A stretch of 64,000 nucleotides of DNA, from assembly GCA_009829735.1 (NCBI GenBank), contig CM020619.1, positions 13,073,777 through 13,137,776 on the forward strand, written 5' to 3'. Every line of letters begins with the position of its first letter. Positions within the stretch are counted from its first letter, which is position 1. The DNA is from Pyropia yezoensis (lineage: Eukaryota; Rhodophyta; Bangiophyceae; Bangiales; Bangiaceae). Positions 473 through 33,895 of this stretch are shown one piece after another. The notes under the pieces are model-generated. The model worked only from the letters and a program-made list of their open reading frames with translations, had not been told where the DNA came from and did no database searches. A program made the translations under genes and the position numbers.

Positions 473-738
473 GCGTTGCTCTTTTGCCCCTGTCCTCTCT
501 TGTATCCATTCCCCACCGTCCTTTCCCCCCCCCCCCCGCGTGTGCACCTCGCGTCCCCACTACTGGCTGATTTTACCTCTCTTCACGCCCGCCTCTTCTT
601 TCTGACGTGTGACGCTGGCCTGTGTGGACCGCTCCTTCCACGTCAGCTGCGCCCCACCATTTCCCTTCTCGCACCCAGCGGCCCGCCCGCCCCCCTCTTC
701 CCTTTGGCCCCTTTGCCTCCGCGACGACGTGGCCGACG

Positions 739-1692
739 ATGACCCGCCCACGGCGGCCGTCGCGCTCACGCTCGACGGGCCGATCGTGGGCGGGCCCCCC
801 CCTGGCAACCCCCGGCGACGACGCCACGGACGTTGCAGAACGTACCTACACCTCTGTCACGGACTTCGTGGCCGACGTACGCCGGTGGGGCGTCGGCGGT
901 CTAGCCGCCCTGGCCGTCTACCTCGCCCCCATTTTTGTTTGGCTGGTGGCGTTTGCGTTTATCCACGACCTCATCCCCGTCTCGCGCAAGCCGTCCATCA
1001 ACGTAACGCTGCTGCCGGCCATTGATAAGGCGTGCGGGTGGAGCTACCGGTGGTTTGCCACGCCCACGGCGGTGGCGCTGGACGTCCTCGCGGCCGTCCC
1101 CTACACCATCCACGCGGTGGTGCCCCTCTTTTACGCCCCCTTCCTGTTGGCGCGGTCCCGCTCCCCCGCCCGCCTCGGCACGTTTGCCTTTACGCTGGGC
1201 TGCATGAACATTGCGGCGGTGACGACGCACGTGCTCTTCCCCACCGCCCCCCCATGGTACTTTGACAAGTACGGGCTGACGCCCGCGACATATGCGATGA
1301 AGGGCGACCCCGCGGGGCTGTCCCGCCTGGATACCCGCGTTGGGGGCTCTTTTTTCCACTCCATGTACCACGACGGGGGCAAGGTGGTGTTTGGCTCGTG
1401 GCCCAGCCTCCACGGCGCGTGGCCCTACCTGATGGCGATTTTCGCACCAACGGCGGGCAGCCGCGGTGGCAAGACCATCGCGTGGGTGTACGTTGTGCTC
1501 GTGTGGTGGGCGGCGCTCTACCTCCAGCACCACTGGTTTGTGGACCTCCTGGGGGGGGCCCTCTACGCCGAGGTGGCCTACCACCTCGTCGGGCGCCCGC
1601 GGGCAGAGGTGGCGGCCGCCACCGCTGCTGCCGCCGCCACGGCCGCTGCGGGGGGCAGCCGCTGGGCCGCTTGGTGGTCGGGGGGGTCGGCA

Positions 1693-1730
<38 letters not shown>

Positions 1731-1866
1731 GGCGGGCGCCTCCCCAGTGCGCCGTGGCGGGCTCTCTGGGGGGGACCCCCGGCTGGCGACCACCGACGAG
1801 GACGCCGACGATGGCGCCGCGCTGCTGCCCCTGTCGACCGACTCGGACGGGCCAGGCCGCGTATGA
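739..1866 (+). CDS. PAP2-superfamily membrane phosphotransferase, AUR1 (inositol phosphorylceramide synthase)-like
   Basis: A multi-pass membrane protein of about 375 residues, taking the ATG at 739; the open frame begins further up but is Pro/Arg-rich there. Visible signatures are FPTAPPWY, then WPSLHGAWPY, then YLQHHWFVDLLGG. This is the order seen in AUR1/IPC synthases: an aromatic-Pro motif, the PSLH catalytic histidine, and the H-x3-D pair on the next helix. Known members transfer phosphoinositol from phosphatidylinositol to ceramide in the Golgi; that substrate is inferred from the family. The C-terminal ~80 residues are Ala/Gly tracts from GGC repeats and probably a cytosolic tail. The 3.6-kb transposon starts about 340 bases downstream. 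It could instead be another PAP2 lipid phosphatase, but the WPSLH context favours AUR1-like. Confidence 0.8.
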
Positions 1867-2202
1867 CGGCGGGCGGGAGCGGGGTGGGGGGGCGGGGCTC
1901 CTGTTCACCCCCCCCCCCCTCCCGCCCCCCTTCCCGTGGTTGTTTTCGTGGGTTTTTTTTTTCCTTTTTTTTTGTCGGGGAGCAGGTGGAGGAAGAGGCA
2001 AGCGTCAAAGTGGGGGATCGGGTGGCCCCCGGCGTGGGCGGGAGCTGTGCGGGTTGTGGGAAGCGGCGGTGCGTGTGGGCTGTGCCGGCGAGGCGCGCGC
2101 GTCGCCGCTGCAGCGGGCAGCAGCGCTGCTGCCCCCGCTCGCGCGCCCCGTGGCGGCCGTTTCTTTTTTCAAGATCGCCCCCTCAATCGTGGGAAGCACA
2201 TC
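1867..2202. other. intergenic, 3' flank
   Basis: C-rich then T-rich sequence (runs of C near 1910 and of T near 1950-1970), probably the 3' UTR of the upstream gene. It ends in the CATC that forms the left target duplication of the transposon. No gene seen. Confidence 0.5.
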
Positions 2203-2250
2203 CACCCCCAGTTAAGACGCCCGGAGAGCGGACACTAGGGTTCAGAGCGA
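2203..2250 (+). repeat. left terminal inverted repeat of the 3.6-kb transposon
   Basis: Matches the reverse complement of 5761-5798 apart from about 10 extra bases at 2217-2227. It starts CACCCCCAGTTAAG and ends GGGTTCAGAGCGA. Confidence 0.88.
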
Positions 2251-2745
2251 TTCCGGATCAGCCATTGGCCCAGAGCGCTGTGTCAGGAGCAAATATGGCA
2301 TATATTGAAACTTGTGACCCTATTCCAAGGTTCAAACGACGTGTCTGATGAGAATTGGAGCACAGCTGCCTGGGGCGCCTGCGGTGGGCCTCTCGGGTTG
2401 AAAGTCGACATGGAATCGGCATATTTCTTCTCGATGGAAGAGCGCCTAGAGCTTTGTGCGCATCAGCACAGCAATGGCTAAGTCACACAAGGGAGCCCAA
2501 GAGAGGGAGAGCAGGTCGTCTGAGGCGGAAGGGGGTACTTGCACGGAAACAAGAGCAGCTTGATCATTCCCCCGTATCCCAGGAGGTCTCTTACAAGGGT
2601 TGGTCGTCCGATCCCCCTCCCCTGTATGCGCGCAGGTCGCACGCGGGGAAGCCGGGGGAAGCTGAGGGAATACATAGGAGCCTGGAAGACGTCCAAGCGG
2701 TCGTCCAGAGTGCACAGGTCATGTGAAAGAACAGCCAGTGTATCT

Positions 2746-5271
2746 TTAATCGTCAAGCAAGATGGCAAGGCACATTTCCTCTGCGGCAGCAAGCAAGGCA
2801 TCGTCGGCCTCCGCTTCGGCCTCCTCCGCTGCTACTGCCTTATCCTTTCTCTGACGATAAGCAGCTATCTTGGTCACAGCCCCTGCGGCCGTATTGGTCG
2901 CCCACTTGTTCATGTCGTCCTCGCGCATCTCAAGACACGCTGCCGACTCCCCAGGGCTGCTCCCGGCTGCTATCTTGGCACTAGTCGTGCGCATGTCGGT
3001 CTCCTTAGTAGCTTTGCGAGCTCCAGCCGCCGCGGCGGCCCGACGCTTGCCGAGGTTGAACGATGAGTTGTCTAAGCCGCATCCCACGGCCGCTTTCTGC
3101 AGCAGTCGCACACAGCGCTCCAGGAAGGTGGCTCCAACAAGGGCCTTGTTGTTCTGGTTGTCATGCCCATTCCACGCCTCTAAGCCTTGCTCACTGCAGA
3201 GGCCAATTGATCCATGCCGGTCCAGGAAGTCAGGCGCATGGCAGCAGAGGATGTGGAACTTGGGGATGACACTGCACCACTCAAAGTCCGCAATGAGGCC
3301 GTCAACAAAGGCAGCTACTCGTCGACGGAAGGTGGCTCGCTCCGCCGGCGGGATGATCTCAGCCCGGTTCATGACGGGGATGATAGAGCCCCAGAGAGTG
3401 CCCGCATCGCGATAGGCACGCGCGCGCAATGCGGGCACGAAAGTGTCCAGCAGGTCGCACAAGAGCTCCAGCTTAGCAGCAATCTTGTGGCACTGCTTTC
3501 CAGCGAACGCGCCCCCGTGGTACGGAGCCTGGCATACACCCACGCCGGACCGGAGGACCTCGGCCATTGCCATTGAGTACTCAGCCGCCTTCTCCGGCCC
3601 TTGATCGAAGACAACCGCTTCAACGCCGAGGATAAGAAGGTAGCCCGTGCCACCCTGCGTCACGTGCAGCGGCATTGGGGCGATGTCAGCAACGTCAATG
3701 ACCAGGAGGGGCTTCCGCTCAATGGAGAGGTGCTCGGTCATGTCCAAGGGCTCGTCCATGCCCGCCAGCGGCACATCTTGGTACGCAAGCGCCATGTCAT
3801 CAGCGTTCTGGATCGTACGGAGCCGACCCCCCGCCTTGCTTCCAGCTTGCATGTTGCCATACTCATGCAGGTGCTCGGCGTTCACCTTCGTTGGCCGCGC
3901 CCACGCAGTACAGTACAGGCAAGGCATCCGACACGTGGCTCCCGCGTGCCCCAGGTGCGTCGTCATGAAGGCATAGTCTCCCATCATGATGAGGTGAACC
4001 GGCCTGAGCTGGTCCCCGACAGTCATGCCATTGCTCCGCAGGTCCTCAATGTCGTCCGAGAAGAGGTCCGCCATTGTTGCTTGAGCGGCGTAGTCATCCT
4101 TCCGACATGGGAAGGCCCCAAAGAGGACGGTGTTCTCCCGGCTGCAGGGTTGCTCCTGGTTGCCACACCCCAAGACCGCCTTGCACGTGCTCTGGGTCCC
4201 CCCCTTGTCCATCCCGAAGAGCACAATGACGGCGTTCGTAGACTTGCCCGCCAGCTCGCGCTCGATGAACATCCCACTCCGCCACAGGCGCTCAACCATC
4301 GCCTCTAGCGCTGCCCGAACGCTAGCGAGCGTCGCTCCAACCTCCGTGGGGGTCACGAGGTTGCTGCTCTTGGTGTACTCAGCCTTCAACCCGGCACGCA
4401 TCACCTCTCGGCTGGCCAGGCCGCTGGCGGGTCCACCTTGGAGACGACGCAGAGCCGCCCACGTCTCCTGGGTCAGGTTCCGAGCAACAACGAACTTGGC
4501 CTGCACATCGACCGGAAGAGGAGCCAGCGCGCGTCGTGGCACCACCGCAATGACGCCGTCACGTGCAGCCCTCCGGCTGAGGTCGCCAATCAACGTCTGG
4601 TACGAGTCCACGCGGGACTCGCACAGGCTCGACAGAGTGTCCCAAGCGAGCGAGGAGCGACGCCGCAGCTGGCGACGACCCACATCTGCACCAAGAGGGA
4701 CGCTCAGGCGCCGGTACAGCATCGGTCGGCCGTTGCCCCAGCGCGCCCGCACCTCCAGGGGCTTCATCAGCTCATGGTACATCCGCACGATGCCCAGCAC
4801 CTCCTCACGCTGCGCGGCGTCCATCCAGGCAAAAGATGACCGTACGACTGTGATCGCCTCACCAGCCGTGCGGGTGGGGGGAGCGGGCGCCACGTCCAGC
4901 GCGCATGCTCCTACCGTCGTAACGAGACGCGGGGCGGCAGCGGAGGCCTCACACGCGGCGCAAGGCAGCGCAGCTGCACGTGTACGCAGCCCGTCCACAG
5001 GTGCCAACCCACAGCCGCTGTGAGGAGCCTCTCCGGGGCCACCGTGCTGGGAAGCAAGAGCCCGTCGGGTAGCCAGAGACCGGCGCACACGACAGACCAT
5101 CATCCGGTCTCGCGGAGCGCGCGCCGCCTGCTCCAGCGCCACCTGCGGTCCCCAAAGGAGTGCGAGGATACCCGGTGTGGGGGTGATGGTGGGGGGCCCA
5201 TCGGTCGAAACCAACGGGTGCAGAAGTGAACAACACGCACCAGGGGGAGTGGGGACATCGTGTGGGGCCAT
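2746..5271 (-). CDS. transposase-like protein of an unnamed DNA transposon family
   Basis: 841 residues from the ATG at 5271; the frame runs 12 codons further up but only to a GTG. Motifs in order: FGMDKGG (Asp355), MMGDYAF (Asp432) within a stretch ending in CRMPCLYC, LHVTQGGTGYLL, YHGGAFAGKQCHK, and SEQGLEAWNGHDN (Glu694, Glu698) near the C-terminus. From memory, this order (DKGG, GDYxF, CxxPCxxC, YHGG, EQGxE) recurs in uncharacterised proteins of cnidarians and amphioxus. The two Asp and a Glu could be a DDE catalytic triad; that assignment is inference. The C-terminal 120 residues are Ala/Lys/Glu-rich. It is the only gene between the inverted repeats, so it is most simply the mobilising enzyme. 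I do not place it in a named superfamily. Confidence 0.75.
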   Translation of the reverse strand: MAPHDVPTPPGACCSLLHPLVSTDGPPTITPTPGILALLWGPQVALEQAARAPRDRMMVCRVRRSLATRRALASQHGGPGEAPHSGCGLAPVDGLRTRAAALPCAACEASAAAPRLVTTVGACALDVAPAPPTRTAGEAITVVRSSFAWMDAAQREEVLGIVRMYHELMKPLEVRARWGNGRPMLYRRLSVPLGADVGRRQLRRRSSLAWDTLSSLCESRVDSYQTLIGDLSRRAARDGVIAVVPRRALAPLPVDVQAKFVVARNLTQETWAALRRLQGGPASGLASREVMRAGLKAEYTKSSNLVTPTEVGATLASVRAALEAMVERLWRSGMFIERELAGKSTNAVIVLFGMDKGGTQSTCKAVLGCGNQEQPCSRENTVLFGAFPCRKDDYAAQATMADLFSDDIEDLRSNGMTVGDQLRPVHLIMMGDYAFMTTHLGHAGATCRMPCLYCTAWARPTKVNAEHLHEYGNMQAGSKAGGRLRTIQNADDMALAYQDVPLAGMDEPLDMTEHLSIERKPLLVIDVADIAPMPLHVTQGGTGYLLILGVEAVVFDQGPEKAAEYSMAMAEVLRSGVGVCQAPYHGGAFAGKQCHKIAAKLELLCDLLDTFVPALRARAYRDAGTLWGSIIPVMNRAEIIPPAERATFRRRVAAFVDGLIADFEWCSVIPKFHILCCHAPDFLDRHGSIGLCSEQGLEAWNGHDNQNNKALVGATFLERCVRLLQKAAVGCGLDNSSFNLGKRRAAAAAGARKATKETDMRTTSAKIAAGSSPGESAACLEMREDDMNKWATNTAAGAVTKIAAYRQRKDKAVAAEEAEAEADDALLAAAEEMCLAILLDD

Positions 5272-5760
5272 GGCGGCGGACCCGACGTTCACCCGGTAGG
5301 ATGCCACGGTGCTCGGCGGACGTCACGATGTCTGATCTGACGGGGAGAGGGAAGGCGCCGCGTGTGACGCTCTGATGTCCGGATCTGACCGTGGGCTCAA
5401 GCAGGAGCGGGTGGGGCCGTTTGATTTGCGCTCCGGATCAGACCGATTCCCGAAAGAGTGTGAAATTTACATGCAAGGGCAAGAGCCCCTGAAAGTTGAA
5501 TTCGCGCTCGGGGTAATTGCCGAAGCACTCTGAGGTAACGCCTTTTTTTGCATGAAAAAAAAGGCCCGCATTATGGGGCATTTTTTGGGTCTATGAGAAG
5601 GACAGTGCCGTACCTCTTTGTTTTCTTGTTCCTTCTTTTGTGTTCTTGCTCCTGCTTTTCTTGTCGTATATAGACGTATATGTTTTCTCTCGTCCAACCA
5701 GGAAGCCGTGTCGGGAGAGAAGTGGCCCGAACGTGGCACGTGTTGGATGTAATGCAATAT

Positions 5761-5798
5761 TCGCTCTGAACCCTAGTGTCCGCCCTTAACTGGGGGTG
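5761..5798 (-). repeat. right terminal inverted repeat of the 3.6-kb transposon
   Basis: Reverse complement of the left end without the 10-base insert; it ends in CTTAACTGGGGGTG at 5785-5798 and is followed directly by CATC. Confidence 0.88.
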
Positions 5799-6011
5799 CA
5801 TCCCCTTGCAGGCGCGCAAAACCCCCCGCTCCCCCTCCGCCGTCGCCGCCGTCGCTCCCGCAAGTGCGCGCCGGGGCAGCAGTCCCTGCCGTCCCCTTCC
5901 ACCCCCCCCTCCCCCCCTCCCCTATCACGAGGGGGGACCTACTCATTTTCTCCCCCCAGCCAGCCGCCCACCCCCCCCTCACCGCTCCCCACTTTCTGGG
6001 TCGCCCGCGCC

Positions 6012-8102: not shown

Positions 8103-9785
8103 TCACCCCCGCCCCCCCCGCTGTACAACGCCGTGCCAGCGGCGGCGGCGACCACCCGGGCGACCCCCCCCCCACGTCGCCACTGTCGTGGCGCCCCCCC
8201 CCCCAGGGCCGTCGCCCTCCCGCCCCCCACCCCCTCCCACCGCCCCCCCCGCGCCCCGCCCCCCCCGTCTTTGTTGCCACAGCCAGTCCCGCCGCAGGCG
8301 GCGGCTGTAGCGCGCCGCCTCGACCACTGCCCCAGGGCTGTGCATCCAAACCCGGCTGACTACCCCCCCCCCAGACGCGTCATACACAGCCGCCTCGAGC
8401 CGCCGCCACACGCCCGCCCTGTCAAGCGCCCCATTCCACACCCCCGCCAGCCCGCAGTAGCTGCTGGTCGCGGTGGTGGCCACGGGACGCAGGACCCCCA
8501 CCCGCCGTGCAAGCCGCACCACACCACAAGCGTGGGCGCCAGCGGGGGGGGTGGCCAGCGGGAGGACAGCAAGAAGGCCCATTAGAGCCACCCCGAAAGA
8601 CTGGGCGGCCAGGGACCGCGGGGATGCGCCGGCAAGAATGCTCAGCGGTAGTAGCGCAATGGCGCACCAGTCGCTGACGGCATCAAAGAAAATGCCCGCC
8701 CCGGCCGACCCGTCGGGTCCATGTTTGATCGGGAACACGAGCGGCGCATCGGTGACGTAGCCCGCCGACAGTGCAAATCGGACCACCCCCGACAGCAAGT
8801 CAGCAGTGAGCCACGCGGCAAACACCCCGCCCGCCGCAGCGGCCGCGTCTGCGGGAGAGTGGAGGCGGCCAAGAACGTCGAGGACGACGAGGTCCGACAG
8901 GTAGTCAGCGACAATGACGGTCATTCGTTGGAGCACCACCTGCTGCTGGTGGGGCCGGGGGTCGGCCCCCACCGCAGCCTCCGCCGCGGAACCGGGCGAT
9001 GGGGTGGCACCCGCTGCCGCTGACGTCGCCACCACGGCCGGTCGGGGCCCCACCGGCCAGTCACGGGGGGGGTCATAGAGGGGTGCTGGAGGAGGGGGGG
9101 GGAAGGGCGCCAGTACAGCCTCCGCGAGGGAGTGCAACGGGCCCCGCCGAGGGGGTAGGGGAGGAAGGATGGGCGACGGTGGAGGCGCCGGCAGCGCCGC
9201 AATAGCAGCGACCGCTGCCGCAGTTGTCAGAGCGGTAGCTACCGCCGGTGGAGTGGCCGACCCTGCAGCGTCTGACGACAACAATGACGGCGAAGGCGGC
9301 GCCTGGCCACAGGTGCATCTACCGGGACCGCAGCTACAACTCAAGAACCCATCCCCCGGCGGTTCCGGCGGCCGAAAAGACACTGCAGCCGCGGCCGTGG
9401 CCGTTGTCCTCGTAGGGGGCAATGCAGCCGGCGCGGGGTCCCCCCCGCTGTCCATGGCGGCAGCAGCGGCAGCAGCATCGACAGTGGGCAAGGAACCCCG
9501 CTCCCCGGGGGTGCCCCCCCTCCCTTCGGCAGGGTTCACACCGCCCCACCCTCGGATGCGGCGGAAGCCGAAGCCGACAGCCACTGCCGACGGCCCCCCG
9601 CCGCCGTCAGACCGGCCATCGGACGGGGGTGGCTCATGCGGCCGACGGCGATGGTGGTCTACGCGAACGCCCCGACGGGCGGCAGGGACGCACAAGGCCA
9701 GCCGACGGGGGGAGAAGGCAGATGCGGGGGCGTCGCCTGTTGCCCACGGGCAGGCTGCCAGCGCGCCAGCAGTGGCAAACGCCAT
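8103..9785 (-). CDS. FAD4/TMEM189-like (lipid desaturase domain) membrane protein without the histidine clusters
   Basis: 560 residues. The N-terminus (MAFATAGALAACPWATG, then Ser/Arg-rich) looks like a plastid transit peptide; residues ~50-270 are low complexity. The C-terminal half follows the layout of plant FAD4 and CarF/TMEM189: AAWLTADLLSGVVRFALSAG (family: ADLgSGvyHWaiD), a helical stretch, GAHACG, and YCGLAGVWNGALDRAGVW followed by RRLEAAVY (family: YC...G.WN..LD....w..lE). The family's metal-binding histidine pairs are not there: the position of the HH.P motif reads PIKHGPDG, and the segment before YCGLAG, which carries HAEHH in FAD4, has no histidine. FAD4 desaturates phosphatidylglycerol in plastids and CarF/TMEM189 makes plasmalogen. 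This protein keeps the fold signals but probably not the chemistry. Confidence 0.68.
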   Translation of the reverse strand: MAFATAGALAACPWATGDAPASAFSPRRLALCVPAARRGVRVDHHRRRPHEPPPSDGRSDGGGGPSAVAVGFGFRRIRGWGGVNPAEGRGGTPGERGSLPTVDAAAAAAAMDSGGDPAPAALPPTRTTATAAAAVSFRPPEPPGDGFLSCSCGPGRCTCGQAPPSPSLLSSDAAGSATPPAVATALTTAAAVAAIAALPAPPPSPILPPLPPRRGPLHSLAEAVLAPFPPPPPAPLYDPPRDWPVGPRPAVVATSAAAGATPSPGSAAEAAVGADPRPHQQQVVLQRMTVIVADYLSDLVVLDVLGRLHSPADAAAAAGGVFAAWLTADLLSGVVRFALSAGYVTDAPLVFPIKHGPDGSAGAGIFFDAVSDWCAIALLPLSILAGASPRSLAAQSFGVALMGLLAVLPLATPPAGAHACGVVRLARRVGVLRPVATTATSSYCGLAGVWNGALDRAGVWRRLEAAVYDASGGGVVSRVWMHSPGAVVEAARYSRRLRRDWLWQQRRGGRGAGGAVGGGGGREGDGPGGGGATTVATWGGGRPGGRRRRWHGVVQRGGRG

Positions 9786-33802: not shown

Positions 33803-33895
33803 CTCTCGATAGCTCAGTTGGCAGAGCGTCTGACTGTAGTGGTCCCCGCACTTGAAGACATCAGAATGTCGCTGGTTCGACTCCGGCTCGAGAGA
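33803..33895 (+). tRNA. tRNA-Tyr (anticodon GUA) with a 20-base intron
   Basis: Acceptor stem CTCTCGA (33803-33809) pairs with TCGAGAG (33888-33894), discriminator A at 33895. The D arm is GCTC-AGTTGGCA-GAGC. Anticodon stem TCTGA/TCAGA encloses C-T-GTA-G, then an intron at 33840-33859 directly after position 37, then A38. The T arm is GCTGG-TTCGACT-CCGGC. This is the usual intron site of eukaryotic nuclear tRNA-Tyr. Internal promoter boxes are visible (TAGCTCAGTTGG and GGTTCGACTCC), and a run of five T about ten bases past the end would stop RNA polymerase III. Confidence 0.95.

What the first reader, a model, noticed from the sequence alone, without database searches (positions are those of the whole stretch)
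2203..5798. Complete DNA transposon with a DKGG / GDY / EQGxE transposase and a 4-bp CATC target duplication
Both ends, the target duplication and an 841-residue intact ORF are visible. The motif order resembles proteins I recall only as uncharacterised in invertebrates, so this may be a plant-lineage member of an unnamed superfamily, with D355, D432 and E694 or E698 as a possible DDE triad.
Basis: partly seen in the sequence, partly recalled or inferred. Interest (0 to 1): 0.8.

Follow-up and report, generated by a model that had tools for sequence, protein, structure and literature searches.

The report
Red-alga Chapaev transposon with asymmetric ends
This is a complete cut-and-paste transposon in what is almost surely the nori seaweed genome, of the known Chapaev kind related to the RAG enzyme of our immune system, and its two ends differ by one DNA turn in a way that resembles the 12/23 signals of antibody gene assembly.

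Summary
In detail: a 3,596-bp element (2203-5798), 4-bp CATC duplication, inverted ends, intact 841-residue transposase. The genome (contig sizes match Pyropia yezoensis) holds 11 other loci at 96-98% and more distant subfamilies. Of 18 copies with both ends, 17 have perfect 4-bp duplications; 3 of 3 joined sites searched have paralogous empty sites. It is not an unnamed superfamily: CAC..GTG ends, 4-bp duplication, motifs C(2)C, LH, H(4)H, and relatives passing the Pfam DUF1280 cut-off place it with Chapaev. The fold match is RAG1/RAGL/HzTransib in the first 35 of 50 listed entries. The triad is most likely D355, D432, E698 rather than E694.

What looks new is in the ends. Behind the terminal 14-mer a second block lies 1 bp away at the transposase-start end and 11 bp away at the other, a 10-bp offset in 28 of 28 elements. 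Genome-wide, 98 of 100 listed sites have gap 1 or 11, and all 29 convergent pairs found among them join a short with a long end. This resembles the RAG 12/23 arrangement. That it is a pairing rule is inferred.

The parts
2199..2202 (.). left target-site duplication CATC
5799..5802 (.). right target-site duplication CATC
2203..5798 (-). complete Chapaev-type DNA transposon, 3596 bp (transposase reads on the - strand)
2203..2216 (+). 3' end of the element: terminal 14-mer CACCCCCAGTTAAG
2217..2227 (+). 3' end: 11-bp long spacer (sequence variable between subfamilies, length nearly constant)
2228..2249 (+). 3' end: second conserved block GCGGACACTAGGGTTCAGAGCG
5785..5798 (-). 5' end of the element (upstream of the ORF): terminal 14-mer
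5784..5784 (-). 5' end: 1-bp short spacer
5762..5783 (-). 5' end: second conserved block
2746..5271 (-). transposase ORF, 841 aa plus stop
4207..4209 (-). D355, proposed first catalytic Asp (DKGG), in the first core strand of the predicted fold
3976..3978 (-). D432, proposed second catalytic Asp (GDY), just after a predicted core strand
3910..3921 (-). C451-x2-C454, C(2)C motif, 19 residues after D432 as in RAG1 D708/C727
3664..3669 (-). L535-H536, LH motif
3238..3255 (-). H673-x4-H678, H(4)H motif
3178..3180 (-). E698, most likely catalytic Glu (RAG1 E962 equivalent)
3169..3171 (-). N701, where the other rows compared have His (14 of 14, 14 of 14)

Best explanation
The element is an autonomous, recently mobile cut-and-paste transposon of the Chapaev group (CMC/CMCT clade) in a red alga. 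Its transposase has a RAG1-like core: an RNase H fold with D355, D432 and E698, and a zinc site C451/C454/H673/H678 (inferred from motif spacing and predicted fold). The transposase cuts next to CAC at both ends and joins them to target DNA with a 4-bp stagger, which gives the 4-bp duplication (the duplication is shown by copies and empty sites). By analogy with RAG1 and Transib it probably cuts through a hairpin on the flanking DNA (inferred). Each end is bipartite: the terminal 14-mer plus a second block, set 1 bp away at the transposase-start end and 11 bp away at the other end. The conserved 10-bp, one-turn difference is shown; that the transposase needs one short-spacer and one long-spacer end to pair, as RAG needs a 12 and a 23 signal, is inferred.
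Against: The window protein itself has no Pfam hit; the DUF1280 link runs through relatives and covers only 48-62 of 220 profile positions around the first Asp. With the smaller alignment A1 only 3 of 7 PDB rows were RAG1, E 0.45-0.85, beside unrelated proteins. Both fold models are weak (mean pLDDT 51.4 and 59.3), with low TM-scores (about 0.2 and 0.4) and large rmsd in many rows. No Repbase sequence was available, so no tree was made. All elements come from one genome; copies of a family are not independent, and the asymmetry could be inherited without being needed. In five elements the 10-bp offset wins by one point only (L032, L035, L040, L042, L048). Beyond its first seven bases the second block is hardly more conserved between subfamilies than the spacer (0.65 over 14 bases against 0.56). 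The related pattern did not exceed its control. PMC7204232 proposes that invertebrate RAG-like transposases are relatively insensitive to end asymmetry. The window copy has N701 where relatives have His. In L032 E698 is Lys and in L045 C454 is Arg.
Confidence: 0.85

Rival explanations
1. It belongs to a separate, unnamed or recently proposed superfamily of the CMCT clade (for example Lanisha), not to Chapaev proper.
For: P0001 itself has no Pfam hit; no tree with reference Chapaev or Lanisha was possible; PMC12730594 lists Lanisha as a lineage with the same motifs (passages).
Against: Relatives joined to P0001 at E below 1e-137 reach the DUF1280 cut-off. Lanisha is described as similar to EnSpm, whereas profile comparison with EnSpm/CACTA proteins of this genome gives probability 0.2 of 100.
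Confidence: 0.12
2. It is a diverged Transib/RAG-like transposon rather than Chapaev.
For: RAG1, RAGL and HzTransib are the nearest solved folds; CAC ends; asymmetric bipartite ends as reported for RAGL and subgroup I Transib (PMC9435367). PMC4411706 counts Chapaev and Chapaev3 as clades of a wider Transib superfamily (passage).
Against: TSD is 4 bp, not 5. Pfam RAG1 reaches only E 0.19 in one of 18 members while DUF1280 reaches 1e-6 in a relative. I saw no Chapaev structure among the matches, so the fold cannot separate the two.
Confidence: 0.05
3. The 1/11 spacing is only a relic of common descent and has no role in pairing.
For: All elements may share one ancestor; no functional test; PMC7204232 holds that invertebrate RAG-like transposases may be insensitive to asymmetry.
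Against: Spacer sequences have diverged (14 distinct 11-mers listed, mean pairwise identity 0.46, minimum 0.09) while the length stays 11 in 46 of the 48 long-gap sites listed, and short elements of about 285, 576, 783-842 and 1,070 bp keep one end of each kind.
Confidence: 0.3

Closest known systems
Chapaev transposons of animals (CMC superfamily; Pfam DUF1280)
   Same: CAC..GTG ends, 4-bp TSD, DDE with C(2)C, LH, H(4)H, DUF1280-type first-Asp region in relatives
   Different: Host is a red alga; bipartite ends with 1-bp and 11-bp spacers (the words asymmetr*, spacer and subterminal do not occur in PMC4079192 or PMC12730594); no RING or Chapa domain identified. Repbase now files Chapaev under EnSpm (PMC4455052, passage)
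Transib / RAG-like transposons and RAG1
   Same: Predicted core fold; C(2)C, H(4)H and catalytic Glu at identical local spacings; CAC ends; asymmetric bipartite ends (12/23 in RSS; 4/13 in A. anophagefferens RAGL per PMC9435367; an 11-bp end length difference in C. virginica RAGL per PMC7204232)
   Different: 4-bp instead of 5-bp TSD; one long sense ORF, no RAG2-like gene looked for beyond that; spacers 1/11; sequence similarity only at profile level
EnSpm/CACTA elements of the same genome (PF02992)
   Same: CMC clade with the shared motifs (PMC12730594)
   Different: No detectable profile similarity; A1 profile finds none of the 8 CACTA loci fetched at E up to 10
Lanisha (Repbase Reports 2020, reference seen in PMC12730594)
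   Same: CMCT clade motifs (PMC12730594)
   Different: Not comparable here: no sequence available

Membership tests
Chapaev (CMC) | terminal 5'-CAC and GTG-3' | tested here: met
   window and copies
Chapaev (CMC) | 3- to 4-bp TSD | tested here: met
   17 of 18 copies perfect 4 bp; three empty sites
Chapaev (CMC) | DDE core with C(2)C, LH and H(4)H motifs | tested here: met
   definition from PMC4079192 (passages)
Chapaev (CMC) | DUF1280 (PF06918) similarity of the family | tested here: met
   4 of 4 tested relatives reach the cut-off and are joined to P0001's alignment by profile
Chapaev (CMC) | DUF1280 (PF06918) similarity of the window protein itself | tested here: inconclusive
   no hit for P0001; 9 of 18 aligned members match weakly
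Chapaev (CMC) | tree placement with reference Chapaev | not testable with these tools
   no Repbase or eukaryotic protein collection
Chapaev (CMC) | N-terminal Chapa zinc domain (some groups also RING) | tested here: inconclusive
   five relatives carry CxxC-x55/56-CxxC at the N-terminus; no match to it seen in the window element (output cut in the middle); no Chapa model to compare
Transib / RAGL | 5-bp TSD | tested here: not met
   4 bp
Transib / RAGL | RAG1-like core fold | tested here: met
   on weak models
Transib / RAGL | RAG2-like partner gene (RAGL only) | tested here: inconclusive
   one long sense ORF in the element; shorter ORFs not searched
EnSpm/CACTA | PF02992 transposase | tested here: not met
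   no Pfam hit for P0001; profile-profile probability 0.2
Lanisha | transposase similarity | not testable with these tools
   no sequence held

The most novel reading that the evidence does not exclude
A 12/23-like pairing rule, one short-spacer and one long-spacer end differing by one DNA turn, operates in Chapaev transposons of a red alga. It would then be older than, or have arisen apart from, the Transib/RAG line in which I saw it reported, so that the asymmetry behind V(D)J recombination reflects an ancient property of the whole CMCT transposase clade.
Probability: 0.3. Interest if true: 0.8.

Novelty: new variant of a known kind. Interest (0 to 1): 0.58.

Why it matters
The transposon itself is a new family of a known kind. 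Its ends matter more: the 12/23 rule orders antibody gene assembly, and its evolutionary depth is open. A young, multi-copy family with a near-strict 1/11 spacing, outside the Transib/RAG line, gives a natural system in which to test whether asymmetric ends are ancestral in this transposase clade and whether one-turn offsets enforce pairing of unlike ends.

Full report
1. The observation. The terminal 14-mer is perfect at both ends; an inner 21-mer is found twice in the window and nowhere else with up to 3 mismatches. The ORF on the - strand encodes 841 residues. An open frame of 858 codons is far beyond 200 first-order Markov simulations of the element, maximum 455.

2. Copies. The window is G000:C2:13073777-13137776 of a 107.5-Mb genome. 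Its three large contigs of 43.6, 34.3 and 29.4 Mb match the three scaffolds given for Pyropia yezoensis in PMC7423979 (passages), so the host is almost surely that red alga. A protein search gave 69 matches, a lower bound by the tool's own note: the window copy, 11 loci at 96-98% identity, a group at about 77-92% that includes many fragments, and others at 69% and below. Of 18 copies with both ends in hand, 17 have a perfect 4-bp duplication and one (L004) differs. In a second batch of 22 loci, where pairs were kept only if at least 3 of 4 duplication bases agreed, nine loci gave 4 of 4 and one place (L025 and L043) 3 of 4; the others gave no such pair, and L034 holds a further small pair with 3 of 4. 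I see no consensus in the duplications. The 12 close copies are 98.8% identical on average, and 7 of the 12 keep the 858-codon frame open.

3. Empty sites. Flanks of 23 insertions were joined with one copy of the duplication; three whose flanks looked repetitive were searched. All three exist elsewhere in the genome as continuous sequence across the junction: L022 (12 places covering 1-120 at 91-97%, some with a base or two more), L019 (best 95% over 4-120), L038 (best 94% over 1-120), while the occupied site itself matches only as two halves. The site of the window copy itself was not searched.

4. What the protein is. P0001 alone hits nothing in Pfam, PHROGs or PDB sequences. With its relatives a clear picture forms. 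Nine of 18 aligned members match Pfam DUF1280 weakly, best E 0.0012. A search of the genome with DUF1280 gave 29 matches, 8 marked over cut-off. Four of these proteins, scanned alone, all reach the cut-off, and the profile of the window family finds them along most of their length (L057 E 1.4e-152). PMC3985635 (passages) identifies DUF1280 with Chapaev transposases of animals and groups it with RAG1. PMC4079192 (passages) gives the Chapaev hallmarks: 3-4 bp duplication, CAC..GTG, and the motifs C(2)C, LH and H(4)H. The family has all of them. PMC12730594 (passages) places Chapaev, Transib, EnSpm, Mirage, Plavaka, ESTA and Lanisha in one CMCT clade; PMC4411706 (passages) counts Chapaev as a clade of a wider Transib superfamily; Repbase files it under EnSpm (PMC4455052, passage). 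The name of the next rank up is thus a matter of usage; the Chapaev label is not affected.

6. The ends. In the elements read, the second conserved block sits at different distances from the terminal 14-mer at the two ends. For 28 elements with both ends, from the close copies down to subfamilies of about 40% protein identity, the best offset between the two ends is exactly 10 bp in 28 of 28, and the short spacer is at the end upstream of the transposase. The margin is wide in most, one point in five (L032, L035, L040, L042, L048). Of 222 sites matching CAGTTAAG, 0-20 bases, GCGGAC (8 in the reversed control), the 100 listed have gaps of 1 (52), 11 (46), 12 (1) and 13 (1). Counts for the whole genome: one at gaps 2-10 (control 5) and four at gaps 12-20 (control 2), hence 217 at 0, 1 or 11; gap 0 was not counted alone and none of the 100 listed has it. 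Among the listed sites, 29 convergent pairs under 4.5 kb all join a short with a long end, 28 as 1/11 and one as 1/12; two of the pairs share one right end. They include full-length elements and short ones of about 285, 576, 783-842 and 1,070 bp. A subfamily with a shifted second block gave six sites at gaps 2 or 12, again 10 apart, but there the control was as high, six. The spacer varies in sequence while its length is nearly fixed: at the 3' end of eight representatives mean identity is 0.91 in the 14-mer, 0.56 in the spacer, 0.81 in the first seven bases of the second block, and 0.65 over its first 14 bases.

7. Meaning of the ends. Unequal spacers that differ by about one helical turn define the 12/23 signals of RAG. 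PMC9435367 (section 2 part 1) reports bipartite asymmetric ends with 4/13-bp spacers in a RAG-like transposon of an alga and (passages) asymmetric ends in Transib subgroup I. PMC7204232 (passages) notes an 11-bp end length difference in an oyster RAG-like element, but also proposes that invertebrate RAG-like transposases are relatively insensitive to asymmetry, which speaks against a strict rule by analogy. In the two held papers on Chapaev and its clade that I searched for it, PMC4079192 and PMC12730594, the words asymmetr*, spacer and subterminal do not occur. No paper search was aimed at asymmetric Chapaev ends, so novelty is likely but not proven. That the transposase needs one end of each kind is my inference from the absence of 1/1 and 11/11 pairs among 29 and from the nearly constant length.

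8. Mechanism, step by step. Shown by sequence: mobile ends, 4-bp duplication on insertion, recent spread, purifying selection between subfamilies (dN about 0.07, dS about 0.29; among the close copies the ratio is higher, about 0.5-0.9). Inferred from homology: metal-ion catalysis by D355, D432, E698; zinc site; hairpin on flanking DNA; synapsis of unlike ends. The window copy is intact but carries N701, where the other rows compared have His, so it may be impaired.

9. Verdict. Ordinary in kind (a Chapaev family), unusual in host as far as the held literature listings show, and of real interest for its asymmetric ends.

Noticed in passing
L039 (G000:C1:9176300-9182100); matches at C1:9167988-9192995: A tandem array of a 2.6-kb unit derived from a dead relative of this transposase: units 99.9% identical within L039, six listed matches with the same number of stops.
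   Followed up: partly
G000, e.g. C1:2490095-2490379 and C1:11402771-11403844: Short, presumably non-autonomous elements of about 285 bp and 1.07 kb with the same ends and the same 1/11 spacing; their interiors were not read.
   Followed up: partly
N-termini in L019, L028, L032, L034, L058: A CxxC-x55/56-CxxC module, probably a zinc finger, stands at the N-terminus of these five relatives and was not found in the window element.
   Followed up: partly
L049-L056: The genome also gave 52 matches to CACTA transposase PF02992, many in long open frames.
   Followed up: partly
window 622-1866 and 8103-9785: Neighbouring ORFs: a PAP2-superfamily ORF on + and an ORF with a sub-threshold lipid-desaturase match on -.
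   Followed up: no
window 33803-33895: One tRNA-Thr (tgt) gene.
   Followed up: no
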